The position numbers and the translations under genes were made by a program. A stretch of 51,405 nucleotides of DNA from Kofleriaceae bacterium (GTDB lineage Bacteria > Myxococcota_A > Polyangia > Haliangiales > Haliangiaceae). The stretch's first letter is position 1. Every line of letters starts with the position of its first letter. Location: positions 1-51,405 of the forward strand of contig JANTGM010000034.1 of assembly GCA_024762925.1 (NCBI GenBank), in the 5' to 3' direction. This document shows, in pieces, positions 11,184 through 39,644 of the stretch. The notes beneath the pieces were generated by a model. The model did no database searches. It was not told where the DNA came from and saw nothing but the letters and a program-made list of their open reading frames with translations.

Positions 11184-11213
11184 TTGACAGCCAGGGACCG
11201 CGGCTCAGATAAT
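11184..11213 (+). promoter_or_regulatory. Sigma70-type promoter for the TPR operon
   Basis: TTGACA (11184-11189) is a perfect -35 box. GATAAT (11208-11213) matches five of six -10 positions, with an 18-bp spacer. It lies 43 bp before the ATG at 11257 and reads toward the two giant TPR genes. It is the clearest sigma70 promoter in the window. Confidence 0.7.
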
Positions 11214-11256: not shown

Positions 11257-14200
11257 ATGGCGGCAGACGACACCTCAAAAGACGACGAAGAATCCGGGCT
11301 GGAGATCCTTGAGGAGCCTGCAGGTGTGGTCTCTGTTGTGACTCCCATCGACAACAGTGAGGCCATCGATGCTGCCGTTGTTGTGACGGAAGATGGCGAG
11401 CCCGAAGAAGACGCTGAAGAGCTTGAAGTCGACGATGTTGAAGAACTCGATATCGAAGAACTGGATGACTTCGAATTGGTTGAGGAAGCCAGCGAGCGTG
11501 CGCCGGCTGTTCCGCCGCCCATGCAAGCTCCACCGCCGCTACCCCCCCCTCCCAAGCGCGAGGCTGCGCCAAGAGTTCCTACGGCCCCACCGAAGCCCGC
11601 TGCCCCAACCAAGAGCGACTTCAAGCCCGCAGCTCCTTTGCCAACCGCCGCTGCTGCACCCTTAGAGTTCCACCTAGTCCAGCCAGCCGAGGTCTCGGCG
11701 CTCGATGAATTGCTCGATGGTCGAGACAAACTCGATTGGGCACGCCGTGCGGAGAAACTCACCGATGAGTTGTCTCTTGCAGAGAGCAAGGCGCGCATGG
11801 GCGAGCTGGCCTACGAGCTTGGCGAACTCTATCAGCGTCATTTGGGTGATGAAGCATCCGCTGTAAAGGCCTATGGACGAGCCCTACAAGCCGATCCAAG
11901 CTTGCGAGCCAATCTTTGGGCGATTCGGCGCATTTTCTACCGAAGGGAGCTGTGGCCCAATCTCGTCAAACTCATTGGCGCAGAATTGCGTTTTGCTACC
12001 GACGATCGCCAGCGCGCCGACTTGCATCTAGAGCGGGGCAGAATTCTTCTGAACGGCGTCGGAGAACCCGCTGCGGCCCAGGAAGCCTTCGAGCAGGCAC
12101 TGGCGCTAGACCCGGGGAGCTTCAGCGCACTTCTCGCCCTGGAGTCGCTTGCGGGCGAGCGAGGCGACCAAGAGCTTCTCTATCGAACCCTAGCGCAGCT
12201 CGCTTCTGCCACGGAGGTTCCAGAGCGGCGGGCAGCGATTCTGGTGGAGCTTGCTCGCGAGTTTCGACTGAGCGACCAACGGCTCGATGAGGCGCGGGCC
12301 TTGCTCGCCGAGGCCGTCGAGCTTGATTGTCTTCATGCGGCGGTCGATCGGGAGCGGGAGGCGCTCGCAAGACACTGCGAGGACAGCGGGGCTCTTGCGG
12401 CATGTCTTGAGGCGCGCATTGGCCGATTGCAGGAGAGCTTCGGGCTTGCTGGACTTCCCGAACTCGACTCGGCACCACAGGATCGGGGTTCGGAACAGCG
12501 AGTGCGCGCCATCTTGGCTTTGAGACGCGAGCAGGCCCAGGTGCTTGCAGACGGAGGCGATGACGACGGCGCGTGGAGTTGCCTGCATCAGGCGCTGAGT
12601 CTCGCCCCGCAAGAGCCAATACTGCTGGCTGACCTTTCGGACCTGGCCGAACGGCTCGGTCGCTACGAAGAACTCGCAGAACTTGTGGCTGCAAGGGAAT
12701 CGGGGGAAGTCGATCCGGCTCGGGCGATTGGCCTTGCGCTTCGGCGTGCGAGTGCGTTGGCGAAGGCGGGCAAACAAGAGGAGGCCGACGAAGTCTTGGC
12801 ATCTCGAGCTCGCAGCGTGCCTGGCTATCTTCCGCTAATCGTTGCTCGGGAACTCGGTGCTGGTGCCAGCGCAAATTGGGCAAAGATGGCGGCCCTGCAG
12901 TTGGAAATGGCTGAGACGCTGCGACTGGGGACGGCATTTGGAAACGGGGCGGATTGTGCGCCAGAACCGCAGTCTGCGGCACGCCACTACGTGGTGGCGG
13001 GCGACCTCTACCGCTATGGGGTTGAAGATGCCGATATGGCATTGGCCCAATACCGGCTCGCGCTAGAAATGGATCCAGACTGTGTCGCGGCTACCGGCGC
13101 ACTGGTGGAGTTGCACAGATCGGTGGGGCGCTCGGCAGAAGCTGCGCAGTTTCTTGAGGCGCAGTTGCAGTCAAACGCGGTTCGCTCAGACTCCACGAAG
13201 GCGGATGAAATCCGCAACCAGCTTGTGGCTCTCAATCTCGCTATTGGAGACGCCGACGGCGAACTCAAGGCTGTCACAGGGTTGCTGGAGAATGCCCCAG
13301 AGGATGCTGCCTTGCAGGGGCGGCGCCTGGAGCTTCTTCGGGAACTCGGAAAGGTCGCGCAGTTCAGCGATGCGGCCGTTGCGCTCGCCGAGTCCGTCTC
13401 GGATCGCGATGCACAAGCGCTCTACTACTTTGAAGCTGGACGCGCATGCACCGATTGGGGGCGCGCAGCCCAGTGCTTTGCCGAGTGTCGCGAGCGATGG
13501 CCGGACGACCCGATTGTCGGCTTCCTGGAGCTGGACGCGCTGCGGCGGGCCCAGAATTGGGACGGCTTGGAAACGTGCCTGCGTGACAATATCGATCGCT
13601 GCGCTGACGAAGAGGTTGTTGAGTACGGGCGCGAGGCTTTGTGGGTTGTGGAATTTGCTCAGAATAACTCTGGAGGTGCCGCTGCGTTGGCCGTTGCCCT
13701 GTGTGAGCGCTCTCCCGACTCCTTGCCTCTGCTGCTAGACGCTCTCGCCTGTCTCGACCGGTGTAACGCGGATGCGCTCGCTGTGGCCGATGTTCTCGAG
13801 CGGATCGTTGATGCGAGCCATGGAGCGAGCAAGGCCGATGCGCTTCTCAGGCTCGGAATGGTTAGCCGTGGTCTTGGTCGCGAAGCCGACGCCGAGCAAG
13901 CATTTCGAAGCGCGGGAGAAGAAGGCCGGGTTGCAGGTTGGCTGGCGCTATACCACGGCGCTTCTAAGCAACAAGACATCGACATGCAAAGTGAGGCTCT
14001 TGGCGCTCTGGCGCAATCACTCGAAGATGCAGAGCAACGCGCGGCGGTGCTCACCACGTCCGCTTGGTCCGAGACGTTGCGGGGCAATGACGAACAGGCA
14101 GCGGAGCTGTTCTCGCTCGCGCGAGAGGGCAGCGAAGCGCCTGCGGGAGCTTTGCTGGGGCTCTCGCTACTCTCAGCAAAAGCCGTCGATCCTGTTGGAC

Positions 14201-16536
14201 AGGGAGAGTTCTTAGAAGCCTTGGCAACTTCGACGCAGGGCGCTTATGTGCAGAGTTCGCTGCTTCTACACGCCGCGATGTTGGCGGAGGTGCAGGGCGA
14301 TGAAGAGTCGGCAGCAGAGCGATTGCGCAAGGCCCGGGTGATATCACCGCAGGATGCGGGGACAGCCGTAATGCTCGCAGACAGACTCGCTCCTCTGAGC
14401 CCGGAGGGCCATGAAACGGTTCCAGCGCTTCTTGAACGTGCTGACCTTTGCGACATGCGGTCGGTCTTGGCAGAGGCTGGATCAGCACGAGTCGACTGGG
14501 AACTCGAGCGCGCAGAGGCGTTGGAGCTCGCTGGGCATTTGCAAGAGTCGATTGCGGCTGTTTCATCGGTGCTCGAGATGCGGCCAGGGCATATTCGGGG
14601 CCTGCAAACACTGCGACGGGTGTGCATTCGGGGTGGCGATCGCGCCAGCCAAGCTCGCGCAAGTGTCGCCCTCGCTCGGCAAATCGGCGATGAAGAGGGT
14701 AGGGCTGCGCTGTTTCGCGAAGCGGCTGCCATCTTCGACGGCGAACTGGATGACACCGTGGCCGCCGTTGCAACCTACCAAGCCTTGCTGACGGAATTGC
14801 CCGGTGCCCCCGAGTATGAGCGTCTCGTCGAGATTCTTCGGGAGCACGATGACAAGCGAATGCTCTACCGCCTCTACTCTGCGCGCCTGAAGTATCTGGG
14901 GGTTGAGGGCCTGCACAGAGAACGCGTTCCGATTCTGGTGGCCCGTGCCAGGCTGCGGAGAGACATTGGCGACCTCCGTGGCGCGGCGCGTGACTTTGCA
15001 ACGCTTCTCGATGTGGACCCCAATCACCTCGTGGCACTTTCAGAAAGGGCCCAGTTGCTCGAGAGACTCGGTGATGATCGCGAAGCCGCTGATTTGTTGC
15101 AGGTGTACCTGGCCCTGGAAGCCGATCCTTCCAAGCGCGCGAGCGCCGAGCTCGCGCTCTCCCATCTCATGGCTGATAGCTTGGACGACTTGCAGGGTGC
15201 CATCACCCAACTTGAGCATGTAGTCCGACAGAGCCCGCATGATCTTGAGGTCAAAGAACGCTTGTTGTCATTGCTCATTAAAGCTCAGCGGGTCGATGAA
15301 GCAAGCGGTCTTCTGCGCGACATGGCCAGCATGCGGGGCAGTGATGGTGAGCGTGCTCGCGACGAGTTGCGAATCGCCGGCTTGCAGCGCGAAGCGGGAA
15401 ATCGCGAGGCGGCCATCGGTAGCCTGCGCCGTGCACGGCAGTACGATGCCCTCAACATCGAGGCGCTCAGTGACCTGATTGAGCTTGCAGGGGGCGAGGC
15501 GAAGACCCGGAGTGCGCTTGTCGAGAGCGCCGTAGCAGACTTGCGCGGGGCGATCGCTGAGGCCCCCGCGGAATCTTCCCTCTACGAAAAACTCGCAATT
15601 GTGGCGAGCTGGGGTAAGCTGCGCCACCTTGAGCGACAAGCTTTGCAGGCGCTTGAGGTCGTTGGCGGGCTAAGTGGCGAGCAAGAAGCCGCGTTGACTC
15701 GCCTTGGGCCAAGCCCGGCCAGTTCCGAAATGGTCTTTGGCGAGGACGCTTGGCTTAGTGCATTCGTGCACCGTGATGCGGGCGGTTTTGCGGGCCAGCT
15801 GTGGCAGGTCATCGGCGCTGCTGTGGCACAGCTTTCCGAAGGCACCCCAGAAGGCCTCGGCTTTGAGCGCAGTCAGCGGGTCAAAGGTAAGAGCGTCGCC
15901 AAGGAACTCCCAGCCGTGGCAGCTTTGGCCGGGCATCTGGGAATTGAGGGGTTGGAGGTGTATCGCTCGGATTCGCGCGGCGAGGTTGCGAGGTCGGTGA
16001 CAGGAGAACATGCGACGGTGTGTCTGGGAGGAGCGCTGGCAAAGGCTGCCACACCCGAGCATCGCTTTGCACTTGGGCGCTGTCTGGCTCACGCAAAGTC
16101 CGGATCGGGCAGTGCGGTAGAGCTGGCGGAGACAGACCTGTATTCGTATTTTGCGGCGGCGGCAGAGCTTGCGGGAGTTCGCCCGGTGCCAACGATGCTC
16201 GCCGAGCGGACCAAGTCCGAGACCGTCACTGTGTTGGCGAGGCGAATGGCAAAGGCTCTGGGGCGTCGCGCCCGAAAGGACTTAACCGCCATGGCGCCTC
16301 GGTTTACCGAGCTTGGGTCCCCGCTCAGTTGGCGCATCGGAACCGAGCAAACCGCGGCTCGTGTGGGCTTGGCGGTGTGCGGAAGCTTGACGGCGGCCAT
16401 GGATATTCTAGACATCGGCAAGGGAGGTCGGTCTCTCGCGGATGCGCCAGTCGGCCGCGAGCTACTCTCGTGGTCTGTAGGGGAACAATTCTTAGCGATG
16501 CTCGGAAGCAACGAGAGTGGAGGCAGTGATGTCTGA
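11257..16536 (+). CDS. Giant TPR protein with C-terminal degenerate M48-peptidase-like domain (1)
   Basis: A 1759-residue protein with no signal peptide or membrane segment, so probably cytoplasmic. Residues 1-75 are strongly acidic, and 76-125 are a Pro/Ala/Lys-rich linker. Residues from about 130 to 1480 are helical repeats of TPR type, for example VKAYGRALQADPSLRANLW and AQEAFEQALALDPGSFSALL. The last 270 residues differ. They include LEVYRSDSRGE, EHRFALGRCLAHAKSGS and TAARVGLAVCGSLTAAMDIL. These line up with the M48 peptidase pattern VYV...ELxFVLGHELxH and the later ADRxGL region, but the zinc ligands are replaced (GHELxH reads GRCLAH here). I infer an inactive scaffold. The next gene encodes the same architecture and overlaps by 8 bp. 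Partners are unknown. Confidence 0.8.
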   Translation: MAADDTSKDDEESGLEILEEPAGVVSVVTPIDNSEAIDAAVVVTEDGEPEEDAEELEVDDVEELDIEELDDFELVEEASERAPAVPPPMQAPPPLPPPPKREAAPRVPTAPPKPAAPTKSDFKPAAPLPTAAAAPLEFHLVQPAEVSALDELLDGRDKLDWARRAEKLTDELSLAESKARMGELAYELGELYQRHLGDEASAVKAYGRALQADPSLRANLWAIRRIFYRRELWPNLVKLIGAELRFATDDRQRADLHLERGRILLNGVGEPAAAQEAFEQALALDPGSFSALLALESLAGERGDQELLYRTLAQLASATEVPERRAAILVELAREFRLSDQRLDEARALLAEAVELDCLHAAVDREREALARHCEDSGALAACLEARIGRLQESFGLAGLPELDSAPQDRGSEQRVRAILALRREQAQVLADGGDDDGAWSCLHQALSLAPQEPILLADLSDLAERLGRYEELAELVAARESGEVDPARAIGLALRRASALAKAGKQEEADEVLASRARSVPGYLPLIVARELGAGASANWAKMAALQLEMAETLRLGTAFGNGADCAPEPQSAARHYVVAGDLYRYGVEDADMALAQYRLALEMDPDCVAATGALVELHRSVGRSAEAAQFLEAQLQSNAVRSDSTKADEIRNQLVALNLAIGDADGELKAVTGLLENAPEDAALQGRRLELLRELGKVAQFSDAAVALAESVSDRDAQALYYFEAGRACTDWGRAAQCFAECRERWPDDPIVGFLELDALRRAQNWDGLETCLRDNIDRCADEEVVEYGREALWVVEFAQNNSGGAAALAVALCERSPDSLPLLLDALACLDRCNADALAVADVLERIVDASHGASKADALLRLGMVSRGLGREADAEQAFRSAGEEGRVAGWLALYHGASKQQDIDMQSEALGALAQSLEDAEQRAAVLTTSAWSETLRGNDEQAAELFSLAREGSEAPAGALLGLSLLSAKAVDPVGQGEFLEALATSTQGAYVQSSLLLHAAMLAEVQGDEESAAERLRKARVISPQDAGTAVMLADRLAPLSPEGHETVPALLERADLCDMRSVLAEAGSARVDWELERAEALELAGHLQESIAAVSSVLEMRPGHIRGLQTLRRVCIRGGDRASQARASVALARQIGDEEGRAALFREAAAIFDGELDDTVAAVATYQALLTELPGAPEYERLVEILREHDDKRMLYRLYSARLKYLGVEGLHRERVPILVARARLRRDIGDLRGAARDFATLLDVDPNHLVALSERAQLLERLGDDREAADLLQVYLALEADPSKRASAELALSHLMADSLDDLQGAITQLEHVVRQSPHDLEVKERLLSLLIKAQRVDEASGLLRDMASMRGSDGERARDELRIAGLQREAGNREAAIGSLRRARQYDALNIEALSDLIELAGGEAKTRSALVESAVADLRGAIAEAPAESSLYEKLAIVASWGKLRHLERQALQALEVVGGLSGEQEAALTRLGPSPASSEMVFGEDAWLSAFVHRDAGGFAGQLWQVIGAAVAQLSEGTPEGLGFERSQRVKGKSVAKELPAVAALAGHLGIEGLEVYRSDSRGEVARSVTGEHATVCLGGALAKAATPEHRFALGRCLAHAKSGSGSAVELAETDLYSYFAAAAELAGVRPVPTMLAERTKSETVTVLARRMAKALGRRARKDLTAMAPRFTELGSPLSWRIGTEQTAARVGLAVCGSLTAAMDILDIGKGGRSLADAPVGRELLSWSVGEQFLAMLGSNESGGSDV

Positions 16537-19500
16537 GGGTAACGAAGACGATCCGCTCGCAGGAATTCTTGGCGACGAGCTTGGTGAGTGGGACAAGATG
16601 TTTGACTCTCTGCATGAGAGCGCCGACACCGAAACTCCCGAGCCAAGTCCCGTGCTCGATCCGCCGACTCCGGTGGTTGAGCTGGACGTGGACGCGATCG
16701 ATCCGCCAACGCCCGCTGGCGGCGAGGCGATGGATTTTGCTCTAGCGCAGTCTGTCAAAGAACCCCCAGAATCGCTGCCACCAGCATCCCCCTTTGATGA
16801 GGAGGGGGTCACGCTTGGGCCGCCGGGTGCAGCTCCTTCGGAGTATGCAGGTGAAGGGGAAGTGAGTTTTGGCGGTGTCCCCGAGGCGCTTGGAAGCCTT
16901 CTCGGTAGCGAGGGGCACGAGGAATATGAGATCGAGCTTGGGCAACGACCGCCCGAGAGCGCAGTTGCGGCTCCAGGAGTCTCTGATGTTGCTCTCGCCG
17001 ACGTCTTAGGGGAGGAGGTGAATGCCGAGCAGGAACTCGCGCGAATCTCTGATCGAGCCAATGCGTTTTTTGAGGAAGGCCCCGCAGAGACCGCCGCCTT
17101 TGAGCTTGACGACGACTTCTACGAAGGAATCGAAATCGGCAGCAACGCCATTCCAACGCCCATTCCCGAGGATGAGCCGATGGAATCAAGTCCGTACGGG
17201 GATGGGATTCCTCAGTATTCCGGGACACCCTCCTTCACATCCTCTGCGGTCGAAACCTCTGCCGTCGCATCCTCGGGTGTTCTTGCCGACGAGAAGGAGC
17301 GCGGCACTCCGGTTCGTGGCGTCGTAATTCCCGATGCGGCCAGGGGGCCACAAGGTGATGATGCGAGTGATCCGACAATCCCCAAGCCGCTCTCGCTGCA
17401 AGAGTCTGATGGCATTCCGCAGGCGATTGGCCAAGCTGGTCATGGTGCGCTTCGCACGGGTGCCACACGTCCAGACAGCGAGGACAGCGTAGAACTCGCC
17501 TCGGAAGTGGACGGCGCGCTCGAGAGCATTCGAAGTGGCCCAAGCACGCCAGCGCCGCTGGACCTGGATGGGCTTGTGGCCTCTGATGTCGAACCTGGCC
17601 CTCGAATCGATGGCGTTGTCGACGCGGCATTCGACGATGCCGTCGCCATGAGCACCGGCACGCTGCACACAGGGCCCTTGCCAGAAGTTGATGTGGAACC
17701 GGATCTTCCCGAGGGCAAGTTCTCATCATCGCTTCCAGAGCTGAGTCTGTCGCAAATCCAGGTGGCGGAGCGTGTGGAGCCCGACGATTCAGATCGCACG
17801 GAGGAAATTGCGCGATTGCTTGTGCTCTACGAGCGCGAGCTTTCAACCCTGGATGAGCCTGGTGCGACGATTCGAATTCGGATTGAGTCCGGGCGACTTG
17901 CAGAGAGCCTCGGCGATCTCGACAGAGCACGGCGACATCTCGACGAAGCGCTCAAACTCGATCCTCGGCTCATCCCTGCCAATCGCGCACTCCGACGCAT
18001 TGAGCGACGCCTGGGGAACTGGGACCAGGTGTTGGGCCAGCTCGACAACGAAATCCAAAAGGCTGGAGCGATGGAGGCTAGGGCGCTTGCAGCGTATCGC
18101 ACAGACCTCTTGCGAGCGGCGGGTGAGCCTGATCTTGCGAGGGTCGCAGTTGGCGAGCTTCTCGATTCGGCTCCCAAAGACACTCGAGCACTGCTTGCGA
18201 ATCTGGAACTGGCGTTTGTGGATGGGCGCGAGGATGAGGTTCGAACAACGCTCGCTGCGTTGGCCGACTCACTCAGTGGGCCTCGCTTGCGATCGGTTGT
18301 GTACGAAGTGGCCGGGATTGCCGCAGGACGCGATGGTGATCGCGAGGCGCTCTCAGAAACTCTGCTAAAGGCCGACCAGGCCTACCCAAATCTCGGGGCC
18401 CAGATTGCGCGGTCTACGATGATTGCCGAGGAGGAGGCTGCCAAGATGGCAGCACTCGCACTGCGGGTTGGTGAGAGTAACGCGGAGCTTGGAGCTGCTA
18501 TCGCATGGCGCGCAGCGGAAGGGGCGCTGGCATCGGGCGACTCAGAAGCTGCACTGACCTTGCTCACCGCAACTGGGGAGACCGTTGCTACGCATCCACT
18601 TCTACTGCATTGCAAACTGCGCGCCTCGACGGACGAAAGCGTCAAGGCGGAGACGTGGAAGGCACTTGCACTGGCGGCAGAAGATGATCTGCAGCGAGCC
18701 GCGGCGCTCGGTGAGGCAACACAGTTTGCTCACCGAGTCGCGAGCGATGCGGCATTGTCCCTGGCGGAAGAAGCGCTAGCAGCGAATCCACACAGTAGTG
18801 TCGCACAAGTGTGGGTGCGCCGTTTGGGTGGCAGCCCCGAAGAGCAACGAGACATTGAGGATGAGCCGCTAACGCTTGTGGACGCGTTTTCTCAGGCGCG
18901 TTTCCTCCAAGACTCCGGTGATATTGCCGGTGCCAGAGCTGCTGTGACATCGCTGCTTGCCCGCGACGAAACCGACGCACCTGCGTTGCGACTCTACGCT
19001 TTGGAGTTGGCGCACGCATCTGGTGACCTTGCAGAGCTGTCTCGACACTATGAGGCGCTGGCCGCCGAGGCCGCCAGTGATGAAGTCTCGAAGATCGCCA
19101 ATCGAGGGGCCGCTCGGGCCCTAACGCGCGTTTCGGTGGATGCTGCTCCAGCCGTGGTCAAAGAACTGCAGTTGCAGGCTGCCGAGGCTTGGCGGGCCCA
19201 AGCCTTACAGGAGCCCGGAGCAGCTGCCGAGACAGCGCGCCTGTTGGCTCAGCTGTCAGGGGAGGAATCTTCTATCTCTGACTGTACCGCCGTTCTCATG
19301 GACCAGGTTGGCGAGGGCGAGCGACACGCGCAGGTTGTCGTGGAGGATGCCTGTCGCAACTTGCCGAGCGATGCAAGCGGAGCAGCCGAAGGAATCGCAA
19401 CCTTGCTTCACGGTCAAGCAAACTCCCGTGCCTTAGAACTTTTCTGGTCACTGGCACTCTCCACCGATCGGGTGAGTGAGGCCGCAGAGGCTTTGGAGGC

Positions 19501-22483
19501 CGAAGCTGCCAAGGAGGGGGACTCGCCAAGGGCCGATCGCTACCGGTATCGAGCCGCGTATGCCCGAGTGCAGAACGAGCACGACTTGGACATTGCGGTC
19601 GACTCGCTTTCAAAGCTGGTAGCGACGCGTCCAGAATTTGGCGCCGCTCGCGAGCTTCTCGCTACCGCGCTTGGACATGGCGGTACCCGGTCGGTTCCAC
19701 AATCGGGTGGCCACCTCGCCAACAAGAGTCAAGACACGCAGGGAAAGACCGCGCAGAGCTTGCCGGAAGACGAGATTAGTGCTGCCGTGCGGCGTATCGA
19801 GGCGCTTGCAAGGACCGGCGCTGTGAGCGAGGCGGCCGATCGCAGTGCGGATCTGCAGACCCGCTATCCCGACGATGCACTGGTGCAACACAGCTTCTCA
19901 CGCTGGGCATGGATGGCCGGGGCGAGTGCGGACCTTGCCTCCCAGGCCCTCGCAGAGTTGCGTCTTGCCGAGGAGCGAAACGATAGTGACGCCAAAACCC
20001 GGGCCTGCGAAACGCTAGCGCGGATTGACTTGGAGCTTCGTGGTGATCGCGACTCCGCCCGCATGTTTTGGGAGTCGGCGAGCAATGCATCACCGCACCG
20101 GGCCGACCTGCAACGCATCCTCGAAGCTGAGTATCGGGGCAGTGATGCACACCTCGAAGAGCAGCGCGTGATACAGGGCCGAGTAATTGCTTCCTTGCAA
20201 GGCGGCCCAGAGCGCAGCGCATACCTCGTCGCTCGAGCACGCCTTTCGGAAGCTCTCGAATGTGACGCCACCACTGTGCGATCCGATTACGAAGGCGCCT
20301 TGCAAGACGACGCTCTGTGTCGAGAGGCGCTCTTCTTCCTCGAGGCCGAAGCCAGCGCGGCAGGGCCGACCGAGGCGCTCGCCAATCTCGAATTCAGTGT
20401 GGCTCAGTATTTTTCTGATGACCCGCGGGCTCGTGGTGCTTTCTTGGTGCGATCGGGAGAAACCTGGCGCAGTCTTGGCAAGCGCGAACAGTGCCTGGCG
20501 ATGTTGAAGGCCGCCCTAAACGTTGTGCCAGGGTTTGCGCCGGCCCTCTCGGCATGGCGAGACCTGGCCTTAGATCACGAGCTTTGGGGGGAGTTGGCCG
20601 AAGCATGCTTACTCGAAGCCGCGAGTGTTGATAGTGATGCTGCTCGCGCTTCGCTCTTTCTGCTCGCTGGCGTGACCCTGATGGACAAAGTGAACAACGT
20701 CGAGGGCGCCACAAGTGCCTTGCGAAGCGTGCTGGTCGTTGACCCTCTGAGCCGCGAAGCTTTTGTGAGACTGCGTCAGCTCTACCTAGCCGAAGAGGCC
20801 GACGAAGACCTTGCCCAGTTGTTCTCGATGCGACTGGACGCAAAGCCCGAAGCCGAGGCCGAGCGCTGTGAATTGCATCTCTCCCTGGCAAGAGTGTTGC
20901 GCGCTAGTCTCAAGAATGACGCCGAAGCGTTGGCGCACTACCGCGCGCTCTTGGTGCTGCGCCCCAATGACAAAGAAGCGGTGTCTGCGGTCGCTGAGAT
21001 TTCTTGGCAGCAAGAAAAATGGGCCGATGCAGCAGAAGCTCTGATGGTCTTGGCGCGGATCGAGAGTGATGAAGCGGAGTTGGTTTCGATCTTCACGCGA
21101 CTTGGGACCATCTACGCTGAGCACCTGCCCGAGCCTCGCTGGGCGCTCAAGTCGTTTCACAAGGTCGTCACACTCCAGCCTGGAAACTCCGAGGCCCTTC
21201 ACCGTATCGCCGATCTCGGGGCGCAGTGCGGTGAGCACAGGTTGGCACTGAGCGCCTGTGAGCAACTCATCAAGCAAGAGCCACCAATTGCCCAACGCAT
21301 TGAGGTGCTAATCCGCATGGCAGAAATTCTTCGTCAGCATGCAGACGACCCGAAGAATGCTGAGCGTGCGCTGAGACATGCACTAGACCTCGACCCGGGC
21401 AGCGATCATGCTCTCGATGCTTTGGTGCGCTTTTACGTCGAGCAAAATGATCTGCGGAGCGCTCGCGTGCACGTCGATCGCGTCGCCAATGCGATGCGCA
21501 AGAGGATTCGAGAATCGGCAGTGGATGCCGAGGCCTACCGGGTCCTTGCGCGGGCAATGGCAGCGAAGGCCAGTGCTGGCGCTGTAGAGTGCATGCCCAC
21601 AGCGCAGGTCGCTGCCAGTCTCGCGTTACAGCTTGGCGTGGAAAACGCTGAGACGGCAGCTCTCGCCACCCAAACGGGGGCAGGAATGGGCACTGGCCTC
21701 GCCGGCGAGACCTTCGATGACTTGCTCTTTCCGCACGATTCGACAAGTTCTGCACGCGCCCTTTTTGCGCTCCTCGGTGGGCGGCTTGCCAAGCACATTG
21801 GTATTGATATTCGCCACCATGGCGTTGGGCGCAGTGATCGTCTTCGCAAGGGGATTGACAGCGCGGCAGGTGTGGTCCTGGAGCTAGCAGCGGAGATGGG
21901 CGTCGAAGACGTTGACATTTACGTTTCAAAACAGAAACCCAAGCTGGTTGCGGTAGAACCCACGAGCCCTTTCTCATTGATTCTCGGGACAGAGGTCGCC
22001 AACCCGGACAGAGAATCGGAATTGCGATTCCTGGTTGGACGAAGCTTGAAGGGCGCATCAGCAAGTCTCTCAGCGCCTCTTCAGCTCGGGGAAGAGGGAT
22101 TTGGCGTTCTCCTTGTCGGACTCTTGCGCCAATTCCAACCGGACTTCGCGCCAATTGGTGTGGACTCGGAGGCAGCGAGCGCAGAGCAACAGCGTCTAAG
22201 ACGGCTCATCCCAAGCAATCTGCTCCAAGAACTGCAGCCCTATGCTCTTGGGCTCGCAACCAGCAACTTCGATCACAGAGCGATCTGGCAGGGGATGGCA
22301 GACGCTTGCAATCGTGCTGGAGTACTCTGTGCCGGAGATGCAAGTGCTGCCATTGCCGGCCTGATGCGCATCAAAGGCCATAGCGACCTTCGAAAAGCGG
22401 TGCAAGACGCGGAAATTGCTTCCCTTGTGCGATTTTCTTGCTCGAGCGAGCACAGTCGGCTCTGGGCTGCCATACGAGCGTAG
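16529..22483 (+). CDS. Giant TPR protein with C-terminal degenerate M48-peptidase-like domain (2)
   Basis: A 1984-residue partner of the preceding gene. The ATG at 16529 has GGAGG five bases upstream and overlaps the previous stop. A GTG at 16517 is possible but lacks such a site. Residues 1-420 are acidic, Pro/Ser-rich and probably disordered. About 420-1700 are TPR-type helical repeats, for example ARRHLDEALKLDPRLIPAN and AERALRHALDLDPGSDHAL. From about 1727 the C-terminal domain matches that of its neighbour: VDIYVSKQKPKL, ESELRFLVGRSLKGASAS, then CNRAGVLCAGDASAAIAGL. As in the neighbour, the HExxH and downstream acidic ligand of M48 peptidases are missing. No signal peptide. The pair probably arose by duplication and may form one complex. 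Function unknown. Confidence 0.8.
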   Translation: MSEGNEDDPLAGILGDELGEWDKMFDSLHESADTETPEPSPVLDPPTPVVELDVDAIDPPTPAGGEAMDFALAQSVKEPPESLPPASPFDEEGVTLGPPGAAPSEYAGEGEVSFGGVPEALGSLLGSEGHEEYEIELGQRPPESAVAAPGVSDVALADVLGEEVNAEQELARISDRANAFFEEGPAETAAFELDDDFYEGIEIGSNAIPTPIPEDEPMESSPYGDGIPQYSGTPSFTSSAVETSAVASSGVLADEKERGTPVRGVVIPDAARGPQGDDASDPTIPKPLSLQESDGIPQAIGQAGHGALRTGATRPDSEDSVELASEVDGALESIRSGPSTPAPLDLDGLVASDVEPGPRIDGVVDAAFDDAVAMSTGTLHTGPLPEVDVEPDLPEGKFSSSLPELSLSQIQVAERVEPDDSDRTEEIARLLVLYERELSTLDEPGATIRIRIESGRLAESLGDLDRARRHLDEALKLDPRLIPANRALRRIERRLGNWDQVLGQLDNEIQKAGAMEARALAAYRTDLLRAAGEPDLARVAVGELLDSAPKDTRALLANLELAFVDGREDEVRTTLAALADSLSGPRLRSVVYEVAGIAAGRDGDREALSETLLKADQAYPNLGAQIARSTMIAEEEAAKMAALALRVGESNAELGAAIAWRAAEGALASGDSEAALTLLTATGETVATHPLLLHCKLRASTDESVKAETWKALALAAEDDLQRAAALGEATQFAHRVASDAALSLAEEALAANPHSSVAQVWVRRLGGSPEEQRDIEDEPLTLVDAFSQARFLQDSGDIAGARAAVTSLLARDETDAPALRLYALELAHASGDLAELSRHYEALAAEAASDEVSKIANRGAARALTRVSVDAAPAVVKELQLQAAEAWRAQALQEPGAAAETARLLAQLSGEESSISDCTAVLMDQVGEGERHAQVVVEDACRNLPSDASGAAEGIATLLHGQANSRALELFWSLALSTDRVSEAAEALEAEAAKEGDSPRADRYRYRAAYARVQNEHDLDIAVDSLSKLVATRPEFGAARELLATALGHGGTRSVPQSGGHLANKSQDTQGKTAQSLPEDEISAAVRRIEALARTGAVSEAADRSADLQTRYPDDALVQHSFSRWAWMAGASADLASQALAELRLAEERNDSDAKTRACETLARIDLELRGDRDSARMFWESASNASPHRADLQRILEAEYRGSDAHLEEQRVIQGRVIASLQGGPERSAYLVARARLSEALECDATTVRSDYEGALQDDALCREALFFLEAEASAAGPTEALANLEFSVAQYFSDDPRARGAFLVRSGETWRSLGKREQCLAMLKAALNVVPGFAPALSAWRDLALDHELWGELAEACLLEAASVDSDAARASLFLLAGVTLMDKVNNVEGATSALRSVLVVDPLSREAFVRLRQLYLAEEADEDLAQLFSMRLDAKPEAEAERCELHLSLARVLRASLKNDAEALAHYRALLVLRPNDKEAVSAVAEISWQQEKWADAAEALMVLARIESDEAELVSIFTRLGTIYAEHLPEPRWALKSFHKVVTLQPGNSEALHRIADLGAQCGEHRLALSACEQLIKQEPPIAQRIEVLIRMAEILRQHADDPKNAERALRHALDLDPGSDHALDALVRFYVEQNDLRSARVHVDRVANAMRKRIRESAVDAEAYRVLARAMAAKASAGAVECMPTAQVAASLALQLGVENAETAALATQTGAGMGTGLAGETFDDLLFPHDSTSSARALFALLGGRLAKHIGIDIRHHGVGRSDRLRKGIDSAAGVVLELAAEMGVEDVDIYVSKQKPKLVAVEPTSPFSLILGTEVANPDRESELRFLVGRSLKGASASLSAPLQLGEEGFGVLLVGLLRQFQPDFAPIGVDSEAASAEQQRLRRLIPSNLLQELQPYALGLATSNFDHRAIWQGMADACNRAGVLCAGDASAAIAGLMRIKGHSDLRKAVQDAEIASLVRFSCSSEHSRLWAAIRA

Positions 22484-22574: not shown

Positions 22575-24707
22575 GTGAAGTTTCTTATGTCCCGCAATCC
22601 TCTCCACGTACTTCTATCCTATTTTCTATGGCTCATCATTGCGGCTGGTAGTGGCACCCTCTTGGGGTGTGGCCCCGGCGGCTCTGAGCCCGTCATGCGA
22701 GCCATCGGCGATCAGCTTGTGGCCGTCAATGAGGAGTTGGTGATACCTCTGAGCGCCACGGATGCTGATGGCGATGAAGTCTTCTACACCTTCGCCGCCA
22801 ATGTGCCTGACATCTACTCACGAGCGGAGGTGAGTCGATTGCCAAATGGAGGTGGTGAGTTTCGCTGGACACCGCAGGCCGATGACGTTGGTGAGTGGTT
22901 CTTCGATTTCACAGCAAGTGATGGCAGCCAGTCGGATACGATTACGATTCGCATTGAGGTGCGGGCAGCGATTGGAGGCAACTCTGCTCCGCGCTTTGTG
23001 CACCCCCAGGGAAGTGGCACGACGCTCGATCTTTCGGTGAGCGCTTGTCTTGAACTCAATGTTGAGATTGCCGATGCCGATTCCTCTGAAGTTACGATTG
23101 CGCAAGGGCAGCCGCTGATTGAAGGCGCCGAGCTGGACATCATCTCGGGAACGACGGCCACATGGAGCTGGTGCCCCAGTGAGCGACAAATCGAAGCCGA
23201 CGATCGCTACAACCTGCTTCTCACGGCAGATGATGGAGACAATCCGCTTCGTCTTCACCCCTACCTTGTGGTTCTAAGAAGTCCTCTGAAGCCGAACTGT
23301 CCTGGCGAGCCGCCTGTGATCACGCATGCAGCTTCTGATATTAGCAGCCTGGTCGGAATCTCTATCGAAGCTGTCATTACGGATGACCAAGGCCTAAAGC
23401 AAGAGCCTTTGCTCTACTACTCGGAGACAGCGCCAAGCACCCCACCAGACCTTGGACAGATGATTCAGGTGACCATGCAAGAGGGAACCGGGGATACGTG
23501 GACCGCTGAAGTCCCCAATCCCGTCGCAGATCAAGCGCAGGGAGCAACATCGACCTTGCACTACATCATTGTTGCAGACGATGACGATGATCCTGAGGGC
23601 AACTGCGATCACATTACCCAGGCGCCTGCAACAGGCTTCTTTTCAATGGAAGTGACAAACCCTGGTGGCGCTGGTGGTGCCGAGGTTTGCGAACCGTGCA
23701 CCACCGACATTCAGTGTGGTGATGCCAATGATCTCTGCGTCGCGATTGGCTCGGGATCCGACTTGGTGTGTCTTCGCGACTGTGATTCTGCTTGCCCGAC
23801 GGATTTTGCGTGCTCGACTGGCGACATGGTTTCTGTTGATGGTGTCTCCGCGCCACAGTGTGTTCCGCTATCGCTAGATTGCTCAGACCCGGGCGGGACT
23901 GCGTGCATGGATGACATTCTTGAGGACAACGATGGTCGCCCCGAAGCGCTTACCAACGCACTTCTAGAGGCGGACACGGTGCACAATCTTGTGAGTTGCC
24001 CCGCAACCATCGGCAGCGGCGACGACGAAGACTGGTTTGAGATTTCGGTGCCGCAAGAGGGCACTTTGGATGTTGATATCTCCTTTGACAACACGATTAG
24101 CGACATCGACATTGACGTGTACACGCAGAACGGAGATCTGGTCGCTAGCTCCACCGGGTTCGGTTCCACCGAGTCGATCGAACTCTGTGTAGAGCAGGGC
24201 TCCTACCTCATTCGAGTCTACGCGTTTGGCGCTGCGGAAAATCCCTATGCACTTCAGTTCACCACAAGCGCTCAGTCTTGTGATGGCGGAAGCTGCGCAG
24301 CGGACTCACTCGAAGAAGATGACAACCTGGCTCAAGCAACTGTTGTCGACCTTGATGTGGGAGTGTTTGATCAAACCGGGCTCACGCTTTGCCAGGCCGA
24401 CGAAGATTGGTTCCGGGTGGAGTTGGACAACTCAGAGCTCTTGGCTGTCGACCTGACCTTCGACCAGGGCACCAATGGCGACCTCGATATTCACCTCTTC
24501 GACTCAAACAATGTTGATCTTACTCCTTGTGGTCCTGGCAACGTAAGCAGTTGTGCTACCGACAACGGACAGAGTGGTACATCAAACGAATCGGCAATTT
24601 TTGAAGCGCCCGCCACTGGGTGCACGCCATGCGAGTTTTTCGTTGTGGTGAAGGGCTTCAACGGTGACGAGAACGACTACGGAATCCGCATTGAAGGCAG
24701 CAACTAG
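22575..24707 (+). CDS. Large secreted lipoprotein with Ig/cadherin-like and PPC-type domains
   Basis: A 710-residue protein. The signal peptide ends in the lipobox LLGC at residues about 29-32, so it is a predicted lipoprotein. The mature part starts with Ig/cadherin-like beta domains (VNEELVIPLSATDADGDEV, WFFDFTASDGSQSDTITI). A Cys-rich stretch at about 370-440 follows (CEPCTTDIQCGDANDLCV, CPTDFACSTGD), a pattern frequent in myxobacterial surface proteins. Two PPC-type (bacterial pre-peptidase C-terminal) domains close it, each with a DEDWF motif (DDEDWFEISVPQEGTLDV; ADEDWFRVELDNSE) and a YxLRV-like end strand. No catalytic domain was seen, so it is probably a binding or structural surface protein. 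Start is the ATG at 22575, although a second Met lies four codons on. The next gene is also a lipoprotein. Confidence 0.8.
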   Translation: MKFLMSRNPLHVLLSYFLWLIIAAGSGTLLGCGPGGSEPVMRAIGDQLVAVNEELVIPLSATDADGDEVFYTFAANVPDIYSRAEVSRLPNGGGEFRWTPQADDVGEWFFDFTASDGSQSDTITIRIEVRAAIGGNSAPRFVHPQGSGTTLDLSVSACLELNVEIADADSSEVTIAQGQPLIEGAELDIISGTTATWSWCPSERQIEADDRYNLLLTADDGDNPLRLHPYLVVLRSPLKPNCPGEPPVITHAASDISSLVGISIEAVITDDQGLKQEPLLYYSETAPSTPPDLGQMIQVTMQEGTGDTWTAEVPNPVADQAQGATSTLHYIIVADDDDDPEGNCDHITQAPATGFFSMEVTNPGGAGGAEVCEPCTTDIQCGDANDLCVAIGSGSDLVCLRDCDSACPTDFACSTGDMVSVDGVSAPQCVPLSLDCSDPGGTACMDDILEDNDGRPEALTNALLEADTVHNLVSCPATIGSGDDEDWFEISVPQEGTLDVDISFDNTISDIDIDVYTQNGDLVASSTGFGSTESIELCVEQGSYLIRVYAFGAAENPYALQFTTSAQSCDGGSCAADSLEEDDNLAQATVVDLDVGVFDQTGLTLCQADEDWFRVELDNSELLAVDLTFDQGTNGDLDIHLFDSNNVDLTPCGPGNVSSCATDNGQSGTSNESAIFEAPATGCTPCEFFVVVKGFNGDENDYGIRIEGSN

Positions 24708-24783: not shown

Positions 24784-26826
24784 ATGAACAATGATGAGCA
24801 AAGCGGCCAGCGAGCGAAGAATCGAGTTTGCTTGGTTAATGTCAATGCATCAGGCGCTAGTCTCGCGCTTCTCTTGGCGATCGCTCTCAGCTGTGGGGGC
24901 GACGACCCAAGGCCCGATCCGTGGCTCTCAGAGCTTAGGCTCACAGATGTGCAGCCGGCCACGCTGGTGCCTCACAGCCTAATCAACATCGAAGGCTCAC
25001 GTTTTGTCGATGGCACCCTTGGTACTACCGAACTTCACTTGAGCGGGCGCTTCACAGCGAGTGATGGCACCGCTAGTGAAGTGAACATCGACGTTGGGCC
25101 CCTCTCATTCGTCGATTTCGAGCACATGCAGGTCGCGTTTGCGGAGGAAGCACAGGGCTTCTTCCCCAGCCTGGATGGTGATTTCGATGGAGAGGCGTGG
25201 GTCGAAGTCAAGTCAGTGCTCGACGGCGTGACCTACGAGAGCGAGCCGATCGCACTCGAGTTCGCTCTGCGCTCAGAACTCAAACCGAGCCTTTCCGATG
25301 CGCAAACTGGCGAGCTCTTTTTCGTCAACGACAGAGTTGATGTGCGAGGGGAGGGCTTCTTTCTTTCGGACGGAGAGGGCACGACCACAGCAGTTGTCAC
25401 GGGGTGCTTTCGCGCGGGAGGAATTGGCGCCTGTGTTGACGTTGAGGAGCAGGCGTTCCCTCTTGTCGCCGAACAGTCAAACGACCGCCAGAACGGGCAC
25501 TTTGTCCTCAGCCCCGATCTGGTCGGCATTGCAGGTGGCGTCTTTGAAGGAGCTGTGGAGATTGTCAACCGGCACGCTGGAGGAGCAGAGCTTCGAGCAA
25601 ACCCGATTGATGTGACGTACGAGTTTCTTCCTCCCACCTTGTTCTCGGTTGATGTGGATGGAATCTCGCTTGGGCAGTATGTGCAGTTTCTTGGCGGTGG
25701 CTTTGTAAGCACCAGCGATGGTGATGGTAGTGGTGGTACGGAACTATTCTTAGATGGGGGCTTTACGCCCGCCGGATCGGGCACGAGTGTCCCTGTGGAC
25801 CTCCTGCTCTTGCCCGAAGTGCTCGAGGGCCGGACCCTTCGCTACGTCATGAACGAAGATGATGAGTTGGGCCGCGCAATCGATCTGCGCGAAGTAACTG
25901 GCACGTTTGTGGGCCGTGTGCGATTGCGCGTTGCCTACGATGGCGTTGTGCAAGTTGGGGAGGAACTCCCGATCAACTTCGAACTGAAGCCTGTCAAGCA
26001 GGTGGTACATCTCCGCTTCTTGCCAGACTATGTGAACACCTTGCGCCACTTTGGGTTGCGAGCGGTGGATCGCGAGATTCGAGAGCGTGTGCTTGCTGTG
26101 GTTGCGCGAGACTATGCGGGAGTGAATCTGGAGGTGCGCCAAGAGGTGCCAGCGGACTTTGCTCTCTACGCCACGGTCGACATTGCGGGCGAGGACCTCA
26201 ATGGGCTCGGGCTGCTTGGATATGACAACACCGCGGGCAAGGATGTTGGCAACGTGCGCCTTTACGACCATATTGGGGGCGTCAACGCAGTCACACAACA
26301 GGATGGGTATCCGGGCTTCGGCGGAGTGTTCATTGAGTCGATGTTTGCGTTTTCCAAGCATCCCAAGGGCCTGGCAGACGGCATCTCTGGTGCGGATGAG
26401 CTATTCGATGAGAGCTTTGACCCCTTTCGTCCCGACATGGGCAAGGGCAAACCTGTGAGCGCCAGCGATTTTCCTGCGGGTGGCATTGGGGTTCCAATCG
26501 TCGATCCCGGATGTCCTGCGACCAGCCGCCCAAAGCAGATCGAGTGCGCGGTTTGGGTGCTTGGAAACATGATTGGCACCACGGTAAGCCACGAGATCGC
26601 ACACTCCCTGGGCCTCGCAAATCCCGACCTACCAGGCGCCTTTCACAACGAAGGTGACGAGGAGAATCGCCTCATGGACAATGGAGGTGATCGCCCCTTC
26701 GCGGAGCGAGCACAGCTTGAGGGACAGGGGCCAGGTCGCTTTTGCCGAGGAGCCTATGACTACCTCAGAGAAATCCTGCCGAGCGACGCCCCGGCGAACT
26801 ACGAGGGCCGCGAGAGCTGCTTTTAA
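24784..26826 (+). CDS. Lipoprotein with IPT/TIG-like repeats and a metzincin-like zinc motif
   Basis: A 680-residue predicted lipoprotein: a basic N-terminus, a hydrophobic stretch, then the lipobox ALSC. The first 400 residues contain three IPT/TIG-like beta repeats, each of the form INIEGSRFVDG, VDVRGEGFFLSDGEG or VQFLGGGFVSTSDGDG. The C-terminal part has TTVSHEIAHSLGLANP, which fits the HExxHxxGxx(H/D) metzincin zinc motif except that Asn stands at the third-ligand place. RLMDNGGDRPF downstream could be the Met-turn. A zinc protease at the cell surface is likely, but the altered ligand leaves activity open; the nearby His of GAFHNEGDE could substitute. Cysteines near 580 and at the C-terminus may form disulfides. 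Transcribed in the same direction as the preceding lipoprotein, with a 76-bp gap holding a 36-nt repeat. Confidence 0.78.
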   Translation: MNNDEQSGQRAKNRVCLVNVNASGASLALLLAIALSCGGDDPRPDPWLSELRLTDVQPATLVPHSLINIEGSRFVDGTLGTTELHLSGRFTASDGTASEVNIDVGPLSFVDFEHMQVAFAEEAQGFFPSLDGDFDGEAWVEVKSVLDGVTYESEPIALEFALRSELKPSLSDAQTGELFFVNDRVDVRGEGFFLSDGEGTTTAVVTGCFRAGGIGACVDVEEQAFPLVAEQSNDRQNGHFVLSPDLVGIAGGVFEGAVEIVNRHAGGAELRANPIDVTYEFLPPTLFSVDVDGISLGQYVQFLGGGFVSTSDGDGSGGTELFLDGGFTPAGSGTSVPVDLLLLPEVLEGRTLRYVMNEDDELGRAIDLREVTGTFVGRVRLRVAYDGVVQVGEELPINFELKPVKQVVHLRFLPDYVNTLRHFGLRAVDREIRERVLAVVARDYAGVNLEVRQEVPADFALYATVDIAGEDLNGLGLLGYDNTAGKDVGNVRLYDHIGGVNAVTQQDGYPGFGGVFIESMFAFSKHPKGLADGISGADELFDESFDPFRPDMGKGKPVSASDFPAGGIGVPIVDPGCPATSRPKQIECAVWVLGNMIGTTVSHEIAHSLGLANPDLPGAFHNEGDEENRLMDNGGDRPFAERAQLEGQGPGRFCRGAYDYLREILPSDAPANYEGRESCF

Positions 26827-27475: not shown

Positions 27476-29068
27476 GTGACGGTAGGGAGCTCTGAGGTAT
27501 CGGCCCCTCTCCTGGGGCAAGTCGTAGCTGAGCGCTACTTTGTGGAAGAGCATCTTGGGGAGGGTGGCATGGGAACGGTCTACAGGGCCCGTCACATCAC
27601 CCTTGAGAAGAAGGTTGCCCTCAAGGTCTTGCACGGAGAGTTTTCGCGCAAACAGGATCTTGTTGATCGATTCCTTCAAGAGGCGAAGGCTGCCTCTAGT
27701 ATCCGCAATGAACATGTAATCGACATCACCGATTTTGGCGTCACTGGCGACGGTTACGTCTTCTTCGCCATGGAGTACCTCGAGGGGCGTGACCTTCATA
27801 GCGAACTTCGCAACGTGATCGCAGAGGGGCAATTGTTCCCCTGGGCTCGGGCACAAGAGATTTTCTTACAAGTCTGCGAGGCTTTGGCAGCAGCACATGC
27901 TCAGGGCATCATTCATCGCGACCTCAAACCCGAGAACATCTTTCTCGTCGAAGGTACAGGGCGGGATGACTACATCAAGCTGCTCGACTTTGGAATCGCC
28001 AAGGTGCAATCCCCAACCGGGGAAGAGGGGGAGCGCAAACTCACCAAGACCGGAGTGCTCTTTGGTACCCCCGAGTACATGGCGCCTGAGCAGGCTCGTG
28101 GTGAAAAGCCCGACCACCGTGTCGACGTCTACGCCATGGGGTGTCTGCTGTTTCAGTTCTTAACGGGGACTGTACCGTTTAAGGCCGACAGCTTCATGGC
28201 GATCCTCACCCAGCATATGGTCGAGCCGGTCCCGGAGATTAGTGTCGACTTGCTACAGCGATCGGGGGCACCCACGGGGGTTCTTGGCATTGTTGAGAAA
28301 GCGCTTGCCAAAGATCGCGATGAGCGGTTTTCGACGATTCGAGACCTCGCAGAGGCCGTTGCCAAAGTGGGCGCGCCGGGCGGCACACTTGCTCCTGTAG
28401 ACAAGCGCAGCACACGAGATACAGCGCTCGTTGGACGGTCAAAGCGGCCGTCAACACATTCGGCGTGGACCGGATCGGTGCGGGAGATTTCCGACATTGT
28501 GGAAGGCGTGGTTCAAGCGGATGCGGTTGCCGCGGCCGAGGTGGGCGAGAAGTCAAAATCCCATCGCACGGTCGTCTTTGGATCCTTGGCAGCCCTACTC
28601 TTGGCAGGCGGGGGATTTGCCGCGGCAACACTCATCGAAAGCAGCGACTCAACGTCAGTCGATGTTGCGCCCACAGCTCCGAGCGAACCATTGGGCGAGG
28701 CAAGCGAGGTCTTTGGCGGCCCAGACACAAGTCCGGTAGTTGCTCCGCAAGCGCAGTCGATCGATGCGGGCTCTGGCCCCAACCTCATCTCGGACACACC
28801 TGAGGTTGCCAAGGACAAGGGCAAGGACATGGGCAAGACTCAAGGCGAGAAACCCGCTGGCAAAGGGGGAGCATTCACGAGCAACGCTGGTGATGCTGCT
28901 GGCAAAGATGGCAAGCCCACCACTTCGAATGGTGACAAACCAAGGCAAACAACTCCAAGCAAAAAGCCCGAAGGCAAGGTGCCAAGTCCTAAGCATCCGC
29001 CCGGAGAGCCAGGGGACAAGCCCCCCGGCCCGATGGGCGATCCCAAGATCAAAGATCCCTTCGGCTAG
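27476..29068 (+). CDS. Hanks-type Ser/Thr protein kinase with one TM helix and a Lys/Gly/Pro-rich extracytoplasmic tail
   Basis: 530 residues. Kinase domain at about 21-290: Gly loop LGEGGMGTVY, catalytic Lys50 in VALKVLH, HRDLKPEN at 147-154, DFG at 171-173, and GTPEYMAPEQ. All key residues are present, so it should be active and phosphorylate Ser/Thr on cytoplasmic targets. A linker leads to a single TM helix at about 364-385 (VVFGSLAALLLAGGGFAAA). The last 145 residues outside the membrane are low-complexity, rich in Gly, Lys, Pro and Asp, with no PASTA repeats. The start is a GTG at 27476 with AGGA eight bases upstream. Its stop shares a CTAG with the stop of the convergent helicase gene. 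No phosphatase gene is adjacent. Confidence 0.92.
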   Translation: MTVGSSEVSAPLLGQVVAERYFVEEHLGEGGMGTVYRARHITLEKKVALKVLHGEFSRKQDLVDRFLQEAKAASSIRNEHVIDITDFGVTGDGYVFFAMEYLEGRDLHSELRNVIAEGQLFPWARAQEIFLQVCEALAAAHAQGIIHRDLKPENIFLVEGTGRDDYIKLLDFGIAKVQSPTGEEGERKLTKTGVLFGTPEYMAPEQARGEKPDHRVDVYAMGCLLFQFLTGTVPFKADSFMAILTQHMVEPVPEISVDLLQRSGAPTGVLGIVEKALAKDRDERFSTIRDLAEAVAKVGAPGGTLAPVDKRSTRDTALVGRSKRPSTHSAWTGSVREISDIVEGVVQADAVAAAEVGEKSKSHRTVVFGSLAALLLAGGGFAAATLIESSDSTSVDVAPTAPSEPLGEASEVFGGPDTSPVVAPQAQSIDAGSGPNLISDTPEVAKDKGKDMGKTQGEKPAGKGGAFTSNAGDAAGKDGKPTTSNGDKPRQTTPSKKPEGKVPSPKHPPGEPGDKPPGPMGDPKIKDPFG

Positions 29069-36857: not shown

Positions 36858-36860
36858 AGC

Positions 36861-39535: not shown

Positions 39536-39644
39536 ACAACCTCTTGCGAGATCTGACACCAATGTCAGGCCACTACTCGAATCCCATCTATTTTAGGCAT
39601 CTTGAGCAGCTAGGAGCAACTCAGGCTATGACATCTGCGTCGGT

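What the first reader, a model, noticed from the sequence alone, without database searches (positions are those of the whole stretch)
11257..22483. Two giant TPR proteins with matching dead M48-protease-like C-termini
Both proteins pair an acidic disordered N-terminus, over 1200 residues of helical repeats and the same C-terminal domain. That domain follows the M48 peptidase pattern. EHRFALGRCLAHAKSGS and ESELRFLVGRSLKGASAS occupy the place of ELxFVLGHELxHxxxGH, and RVGLAVCG / RAGVLCAG that of the ADRxGL segment, but the zinc ligands are lost in both. Loss in both copies, with the fold kept, implies a selected non-catalytic role, perhaps scaffolding or substrate binding. A coupled pair behind one strong promoter suggests one large complex. 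I know of no description of such a system.
Basis: partly seen in the sequence, partly recalled or inferred. Interest (0 to 1): 0.65.

Follow-up and report, generated by a model that had tools for sequence, protein, structure and literature searches.

The report
Dead-protease-capped giant TPR scaffold pair
Two neighbouring giant repeat proteins of a myxobacterium end in the same protease-shaped domain that has lost its zinc site; this undescribed domain caps a whole family of giant proteins across the phylum, one of them encoded in the known gliding-motility gene cluster, which suggests that a protease was turned into a binding module long ago.

Summary
ORFs 11257-16536 (A, 1759 aa) and 16529-22483 (B, 1984 aa) overlap by 8 nt. 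Each has a disordered acidic N-terminus, a long TPR solenoid and a homologous C-terminal domain (profile match 99.8%, E 6e-28). AlphaFold models (pLDDT 91 and 88) align best with M48/M56 metallopeptidases, and profile comparison with M48 far exceeds 120 shuffled controls. None of 62 relatives has HExxH. The domain is in neither Pfam nor NCBIfam.

The interpretation needs one correction: this is not loss in two copies but the ancestral state of a large family. The domain is found in 182 of 283 Myxococcota genomes and caps about ten giant TPR proteins in this genome alone. One paralog (about 3900 aa) lies in the glt gliding-motility cluster beside GltC, GltE and GltG, so it is very probably GltI/AgmK.

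A and B are separate, conserved GltI-type paralogs. They usually sit in an A-B-C-D cassette with two exported lipoproteins: C (Ig/PPC domains) and D (its own intact HExxHxxG zincin motif). A Ser/Thr kinase is often nearby. Most likely A and B are cytosolic scaffolds whose dead M48 cap binds peptides without cutting them. That function is inferred, not shown.

The parts
11184..11213 (+). sigma-70-like promoter candidate, TTGACA-18 nt-GATAAT, 44 nt before the start codon of A
   Evidence: 11 of 12 consensus matches; the count of such sites in the region is at the shuffled level, so suggestive only
11257..16536 (+). protein A, 1759 aa: disordered acidic N-terminus (aa 1-145), TPR solenoid (about aa 146-1489), zinc-less M48-type cap (about aa 1490-1759)
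15724..16533 (+). C-terminal pseudo-M48 domain of A (aa 1490-1759)
   Evidence: AF2 model pLDDT 88; VIA-align best: 3c37 Z 7.4, BepA Z 7.2, HtpX Z 6.8, BlaR1 Z 6.2
16075..16092 (+). GRCLAH, in the place of the GHELxH helix (HExxH) of M48
   Evidence: alignment to local M48 proteins
16345..16371 (+). EQTAARVGL, in the place of the ELTADRAGL third-ligand segment of M48
16529..22483 (+). protein B, 1984 aa: disordered acidic N-terminus (aa 1-425), TPR solenoid, zinc-less M48-type cap; start overlaps the end of A by 8 nt, GGAGG upstream
21707..22480 (+). C-terminal pseudo-M48 domain of B (aa 1727-1984)
   Evidence: AF2 model pLDDT 91, pTM 0.89; VIA-align ranks 1-16 all M48/M56/minigluzincins: ZMPSTE24 Z 9.6, Ste24p 9.2, BepA 9.1, BlaR1 8.9, 3c37 8.0
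22037..22054 (+). GRSLKG, in the place of HExxH
22301..22324 (+). DACNRAGV, in the place of the TADRAGL third-ligand segment
22575..24707 (+). protein C, 710 aa: lipoprotein (LLGC lipobox) with Big_9/cadherin-like and two PPC domains; cassette partner
   Evidence: Pfam; lipobox; adjacent to B in relatives at 41-58% identity
24784..26826 (+). protein D, 680 aa: lipoprotein (ALSC lipobox) with C-terminal zincin-type motif; cassette partner
   Evidence: no Pfam hit
26590..26616 (+). HEIAHSLGL, intact HExxHxxG motif of D (HE[IV]GHSLGLANP in the relatives read)
27476..29068 (+). protein K, 530 aa Ser/Thr kinase, often linked neighbour of the cassette
   Evidence: Pfam Pkinase 1e-48; relatives beside the cassette in L109 (68%, partial), L106 (55%), L104 (62%, partial)

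Best explanation
A and B are two cytosolic giant scaffold proteins of the GltI (AgmK) kind. Each is a long TPR superhelix that gathers partners, capped at the C-terminus by a domain descended from an M48 zinc peptidase whose metal site was replaced, once and early, by non-ligand residues (often Arg/Lys at the first His, mostly hydrophobic residues at the second). Shown: homology of the two caps, M48-type fold and ancestry, absence of HExxH throughout the family, phylum-wide conservation, a paralog inside the glt gliding cluster, and conserved linkage of A-B with two exported lipoproteins. Inferred: the cap keeps the M48 substrate-binding edge strand and cleft and holds an extended peptide without cutting it, as protease-repressed BepA is thought to do; A and B are made together and work as one complex on the inner side of an envelope apparatus whose outer parts include C and the zincin D; the neighbouring kinase regulates it, perhaps through the acidic disordered N-termini.
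For: Caps homologous. M48 fold. M48 profile match: paralog profile 91.5% probability, score 55 against a maximum of 21 in 120 column shuffles and 17 reversed; family 90.5%, score 54 against 18; A+B alone 29%, score 35 against 17; GltI-type 86%, against 0.4% for the adjoining TPR part and 0.2% for an unrelated family. Zinc motif absent in 62 of 62. About ten capped giants in this genome; 182 of 283 phylum genomes. The C4 paralog lies beside GltG (E 3e-105), GltC (1e-96) and GltE (3e-28). The GltI-type cap is on giant frames (mostly 3300-4240 aa) in most Polyangia-class relatives and in 56 of 57 genomes of a second class. A-B adjacency in 10 genomes and B-D linkage in 18. BepA precedent for edge-strand binding in a chaperone-like role: PMC8423444.
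Against: No functional data for A, B, C or D. Foldseek alone gives no significant PDB match (best E 0.3 to 0.8), and VIA Z of 7 to 10 is moderate. A-B occurs without D nearby in G028 and without D at all in G029, so C and D may be passengers or a separate system. No inner-membrane connector lies in the cassette. The Myxococcus xanthus GltI sequence itself was not in any collection, so GltI identity rests on synteny, size and copy pattern.
Confidence: 0.45

Rival explanations
1. The cap is only a structural end-piece that closes and stabilises the TPR superhelix. The M48-derived fold was recruited as a solubility or folding cap and binds no client.
For: The cap is always at the extreme C-terminus, directly after the last TPRs. 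It has no invariant polar cluster like an active site; most invariant positions are Gly, Arg, Leu or Pro. It evolves about as fast as the TPR part (35-55% identity for both).
Against: Many TPR proteins do well with a single capping helix; a conserved domain of about 250 residues kept across a phylum suggests more than capping. Strongly patterned motifs persist (RAGLLxxGDL, GRAxxxA).
Confidence: 0.25
2. The A-B-C-D cassette is a regulated export or maturation system for the lipoprotein zincin D: A and B are chaperone platforms that deliver or hold C and D, and the kinase gates it.
For: B-D linkage in 18 genomes; 3 more have both on different contigs, some of them short fragments. A second D paralog in this genome also sits next to a capped TPR giant and a kinase (L096). 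C and D have lipoboxes, and D keeps HExxHxxG.
Against: G029 has A, B and the kinase without D, and G028 has D on another contig. Exported lipoproteins normally need Sec/Lol and not cytosolic giants.
Confidence: 0.2
3. The cap is still a metallopeptidase or metal-binding domain that uses different ligands, and is not dead.
For: A keeps the second His and a Glu at the third-ligand position, and unusual ligand sets exist in zincins.
Against: At the first-ligand position A has Arg 18 of 18 and GltI-type Lys/Arg 16 of 16; the general-base Glu is gone except in two scattered cases; B has Leu at the second His in 18 of 20. No conserved His/Glu/Asp set replaces them in the invariant lists.
Confidence: 0.05

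Closest known systems
GltI / AgmK (MXAN_4863, 4132 aa) of the Myxococcus xanthus Agl-Glt gliding machinery (PMC3169522)
   Same: Giant TPR protein without signal peptide or TM; the same zinc-less M48-type cap is on this genome's giant inside the glt cluster (beside GltC, GltE, GltG) and on giants of about 3300-4240 aa across two classes.
   Different: A and B are about 1750-2000 aa, form a coupled pair, are not in the glt cluster, and belong to their own clades. The cap has not been checked in M. xanthus GltI itself.
BepA/YfgC (E. coli M48 peptidase with TPR domain)
   Same: M48 fold packed with TPRs; used both as protease and as non-cutting chaperone, with the edge strand binding the client (PMC8423444, PMC7950410).
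   Different: BepA is periplasmic, has M48 first and four TPRs after it, and keeps HExxH. A and B are predicted cytosolic, with more than 1200 residues of TPR first and a dead M48 last.
M48 subfamily with PELYVSLNPIPNAYTYGHT...FFVIGHELGHIKAGH...WHRKAELTADRAGLL (own contig C100, L085, L086, L088)
   Same: Closest living M48 relative by eye: collinear over the strands, the active-site helix and the ADRAGL segment.
   Different: Active-site residues intact; no giant TPR.
SIR2-TPR proteins, one with ThsA-like N-terminus (own C63, C2)
   Same: Same TPR plus pseudo-M48 architecture.
   Different: Carry a SIR2_2 effector-like N-terminus where A and B carry only disordered acidic sequence.

Membership tests
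Peptidase family M48 (active) | HExxH zinc-binding and catalytic motif | tested here: not met
   0 of 62 aligned caps; GRCLAH in A, GRSLKG in B
Peptidase family M48 (active) | third zinc ligand Glu on the following helix (E..xADxxG) | tested here: inconclusive
   Glu aligned in A, Ala in B; E or D in 16 of 16 GltI-type caps; alignment of this helix is less certain in the A family
Peptidase family M48 (active) | reaches the PF01435 gathering score | tested here: not met
   no PF01435 match at E<=1 in A or B, and none listed for 16 GltI-type caps or 17 A-type caps
M48 superfamily fold (non-peptidase homologue) | helix - three-stranded sheet - active-site helix - glutamate helix, minigluzincin fold | tested here: met
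   B: 16 best VIA-align rows all M48/M56/minigluzincins, Z 9.6 to 6.0; A: six best rows the same, Z 7.4 to 6.1. Z is moderate.
M48 superfamily fold (non-peptidase homologue) | sequence-profile homology to M48 above controls | tested here: met
   scores 55/54/35 against shuffle maxima 21/18/17 and reversed 17/12/12; unrelated families 0.2-0.4%
GltI/AgmK | located in the glt cluster with GltC/D/E/G | tested here: not met
   for A and B: neighbours are hut genes, lipoproteins C and D, and a kinase. Met for the own-genome paralog on C4
GltI/AgmK | giant cytosolic TPR protein with the zinc-less M48 cap | tested here: inconclusive
   A and B share architecture and cap (GltI-type against A+B profile 99.6%), but the cap in M. 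xanthus GltI could not be read
BepA-type M48-TPR | signal peptide and M48 domain N-terminal to TPRs | tested here: not met
   no signal or TM segment, order reversed
known anti-phage systems (PADLOC) | match to a defence model | tested here: not met
   no match for A, B, C or D; of the proteins scanned only the SIR2 paralog matches ThsA

The most novel reading that the evidence does not exclude
A single ancient conversion of an M48 peptidase into a non-catalytic peptide-binding cap founded a phylum-wide family of giant cytosolic scaffolds in Myxococcota. These organise several different envelope or signalling machines (gliding through GltI, the A-B-C-D lipoprotein/zincin cassette, SIR2 and response-regulator versions), with the dead protease as the common client-docking module.
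Probability: 0.3. Interest if true: 0.8.

Novelty: new variant of a known kind. Interest (0 to 1): 0.58.

Why it matters
GltI/AgmK is the largest and one of the least understood parts of the gliding machine. If it and many paralogs end in a dead protease, there is at last a defined, testable domain to delete, mutate and use as bait. It also gives a clear case of a peptidase fold recruited for binding alone across a whole phylum, and a domain family that current libraries (Pfam, NCBIfam) do not hold. The conserved A-B-C-D cassette points to an undescribed myxobacterial envelope system with an exported zincin.

Tried and rejected
Foldseek against the PDB gave no significant match for either cap; the M48 match shows only after VIA-align re-scoring and by profile comparison. 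Two independent losses in A and B: rejected, since every relative lacks the motif. A or B as the GltI ortholog: rejected, because another gene of this genome sits in the glt cluster. Defence system: no PADLOC match for A-D. Strong promoter: only a consensus match at chance frequency. A general Lys/Arg-Glu/Asp salt bridge replacing zinc: seen in 16 of 16 GltI-type caps but not in A or B families, so not claimed for the pair. M. xanthus GltI was looked for in the phylum surveys and not found; one search hit a class without the family. The genome-contig scan returned one named relative only ('Deltaproteobacteria bacterium isolate SJ525'), and the alignment query was not conserved enough. First extraction of loci ignored strand (corrected). 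Full-length models of A and B were not possible (length limit). N-termini of twelve further family members were read by eye only; most look like plain TPR with a short disordered start.

Full report
1. What is there. The window holds two long ORFs on the + strand: A (11257-16536, 1759 aa) and B (ATG 16529-22483, 1984 aa; a GTG 12 nt upstream is possible). The start of B overlaps the end of A by 8 nt, with GGAGG in front, which fits translational coupling. Both have an acidic, proline-rich N-terminus (A 1-145, B 1-425), a middle of TPR/TT21-like repeats, no segment hydrophobic enough for a membrane span, and a C-terminal stretch of about 260-270 residues that no Pfam model matches. They are therefore predicted cytosolic.

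2. The C-terminal domains are the same. Orthologs of each were collected from 36 relatives, aligned and compared as profiles: 99.8% probability, E 5.6e-28 over 285 columns.

3. The domain is of M48 type. AlphaFold models are confident (B: pLDDT 91, pTM 0.89; A: pLDDT 88, pTM 0.87). Re-alignment of Foldseek's candidates puts M48/M56/minigluzincin structures in the first 16 places for B (ZMPSTE24, Ste24p, BepA, BlaR1, 3c37, abylysin, jannalysin; Z 9.6 to 6.0) and the first six for A (3c37, BepA, HtpX, BlaR1; Z 7.4 to 6.1). These Z values are moderate and Foldseek alone was not significant, so sequence profiles were used as an independent test. Against a profile of 29 true M48 proteins from the same clade, the own-genome paralog profile scores 55 (91.5%), the whole family 54 (90.5%) and A+B alone 35 (29%); the best of 120 column-shuffled M48 profiles scores 21, 18 and 17, and the reversed one 17, 12 and 12. 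The GltI-type caps reach 86%, while their own TPR part and an unrelated family reach 0.4% and 0.2%. The alignment is collinear and puts EHRFALGRCLAHAKSGS on EERFFVIGHELGHIKAGH and WRIGTEQTAARVGLAVCG on WHRKAELTADRAGLLCVQ.

4. The zinc site is gone in the whole family. None of 62 aligned caps has HExxH. The first His is Arg in 18 of 18 A-type and Lys/Arg in 16 of 16 GltI-type caps; the second His is Leu in 18 of 20 B-type caps; the catalytic Glu is replaced almost everywhere. A itself keeps a His at the second position and a Glu at the third-ligand position. On a tree, A-type and B-type caps are separate supported clades and the true M48 rows join by a single branch.

5. The family is large and phylum-wide. 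This genome has about ten capped TPR proteins; 182 of 283 Myxococcota genomes have at least one match. N-termini differ: disordered acidic (A, B), SIR2_2 (two paralogs, one with ThsA-like similarity), response regulator plus DUF4388 (one). The largest own paralog (C4, frame 3927 aa) lies beside proteins matching NCBIfam GltG (E 3e-105, with the AgmX/PglI C-terminal domain), GltC (1e-96) and GltE (3e-28). None of these three reaches the curated equivalog cut-off, but the set and order fit a glt cluster. GltI/AgmK of M. xanthus is a 4132-aa TPR protein of that cluster without signal or TM, and was reported only from Myxococcales (PMC3169522). Giants of mostly 3300-4240 aa with this cap occur in most relatives of the window's class and in 56 of 57 genomes of a second class, and the same kinds of neighbours are seen there by eye. 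I conclude, with about 85% confidence, that GltI carries this cap; the M. xanthus sequence itself could not be read.

6. A and B belong to a conserved cassette. Downstream of B lie C (22575-24707, lipoprotein with Ig-like and PPC domains) and D (24784-26826, lipoprotein with an intact HE[IV]xHSLGL zincin motif). A-B are neighbours in ten genomes, B and D match positions are 3-4.3 kb apart in 18 genomes, and the order A-B-C-D recurs, with hutH upstream in four relatives. C and D are conserved at 41-58%, at least as well as A and B. A second D copy in this genome (C47) again sits next to a capped TPR giant and a kinase. A Ser/Thr kinase related to the window's K is beside the cassette in L104, L106 and L109. 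Exceptions: G029 has A-B-kinase without D, and G028 has D elsewhere.

7. How it most likely works. By analogy with BepA, in which M48 and TPR parts bind a client through an edge strand and can act in a chaperone-like way while proteolysis is held off (PMC8423444, PMC7950410), the zinc-less cap is most likely a peptide-docking module at the end of a TPR scaffold. The GltI paralog suggests that such scaffolds form the cytosolic side of envelope-spanning machines. For A-B this would be a machine whose outer parts include C and D, with control by kinase K. Everything in this paragraph is inference; confidence about 0.45. The main rivals are a purely structural cap (0.25) and a D-maturation platform (0.2).

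8. Verdict. Real, well supported as a dead M48-type domain, undescribed in Pfam and NCBIfam, and broader than the finding claimed. It is a new variant of a known kind (pseudo-peptidase fused to a TPR scaffold). Its interest rests mainly on the link to GltI and on the phylum-wide spread.

Noticed in passing
L092:3153-7991 and L098:7145-11866 (own contigs C63, C2): SIR2_2 - TPR - pseudo-M48 proteins; the one in L092 has a ThsA-like N-terminus (PADLOC E 2e-13). Could be a myxobacterial signalling or defence protein with the same cap.
   Followed up: partly
L091:4656-8018 (own contig C135): Response regulator receiver - DUF4388 - TPR - pseudo-M48 protein: the cap is also linked to two-component signalling.
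   Followed up: no
L111 and L094 (own contig C4): A glt-like gliding cluster (GltC, a GltD-size TPR protein, GltE, GltG, giant TPR) in this genome and, by eye, in L172 and L174 of another class; no GltJ next to the giant in L171 or L173.
   Followed up: partly
window 24784-26826: D: exported lipoprotein zincin (HExxHxxGLANP) without any Pfam match, single-copy in most relatives; a candidate new metallopeptidase family.
   Followed up: partly
window 7851-11092 (-): hutU-hutH histidine-utilisation genes diverge from A; hutH is also upstream of the cassette in four relatives.
   Followed up: no
GltI-type caps, alignment A3: Lys/Arg at the first-ligand position together with Glu/Asp at the third in 16 of 16: a possible salt bridge in place of the zinc.
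   Followed up: partly
window 35061-39562 (-): FHA-GAF-sigma54 activator, TPR protein and Ser/Thr kinase in a row: a probable signalling operon.
   Followed up: no
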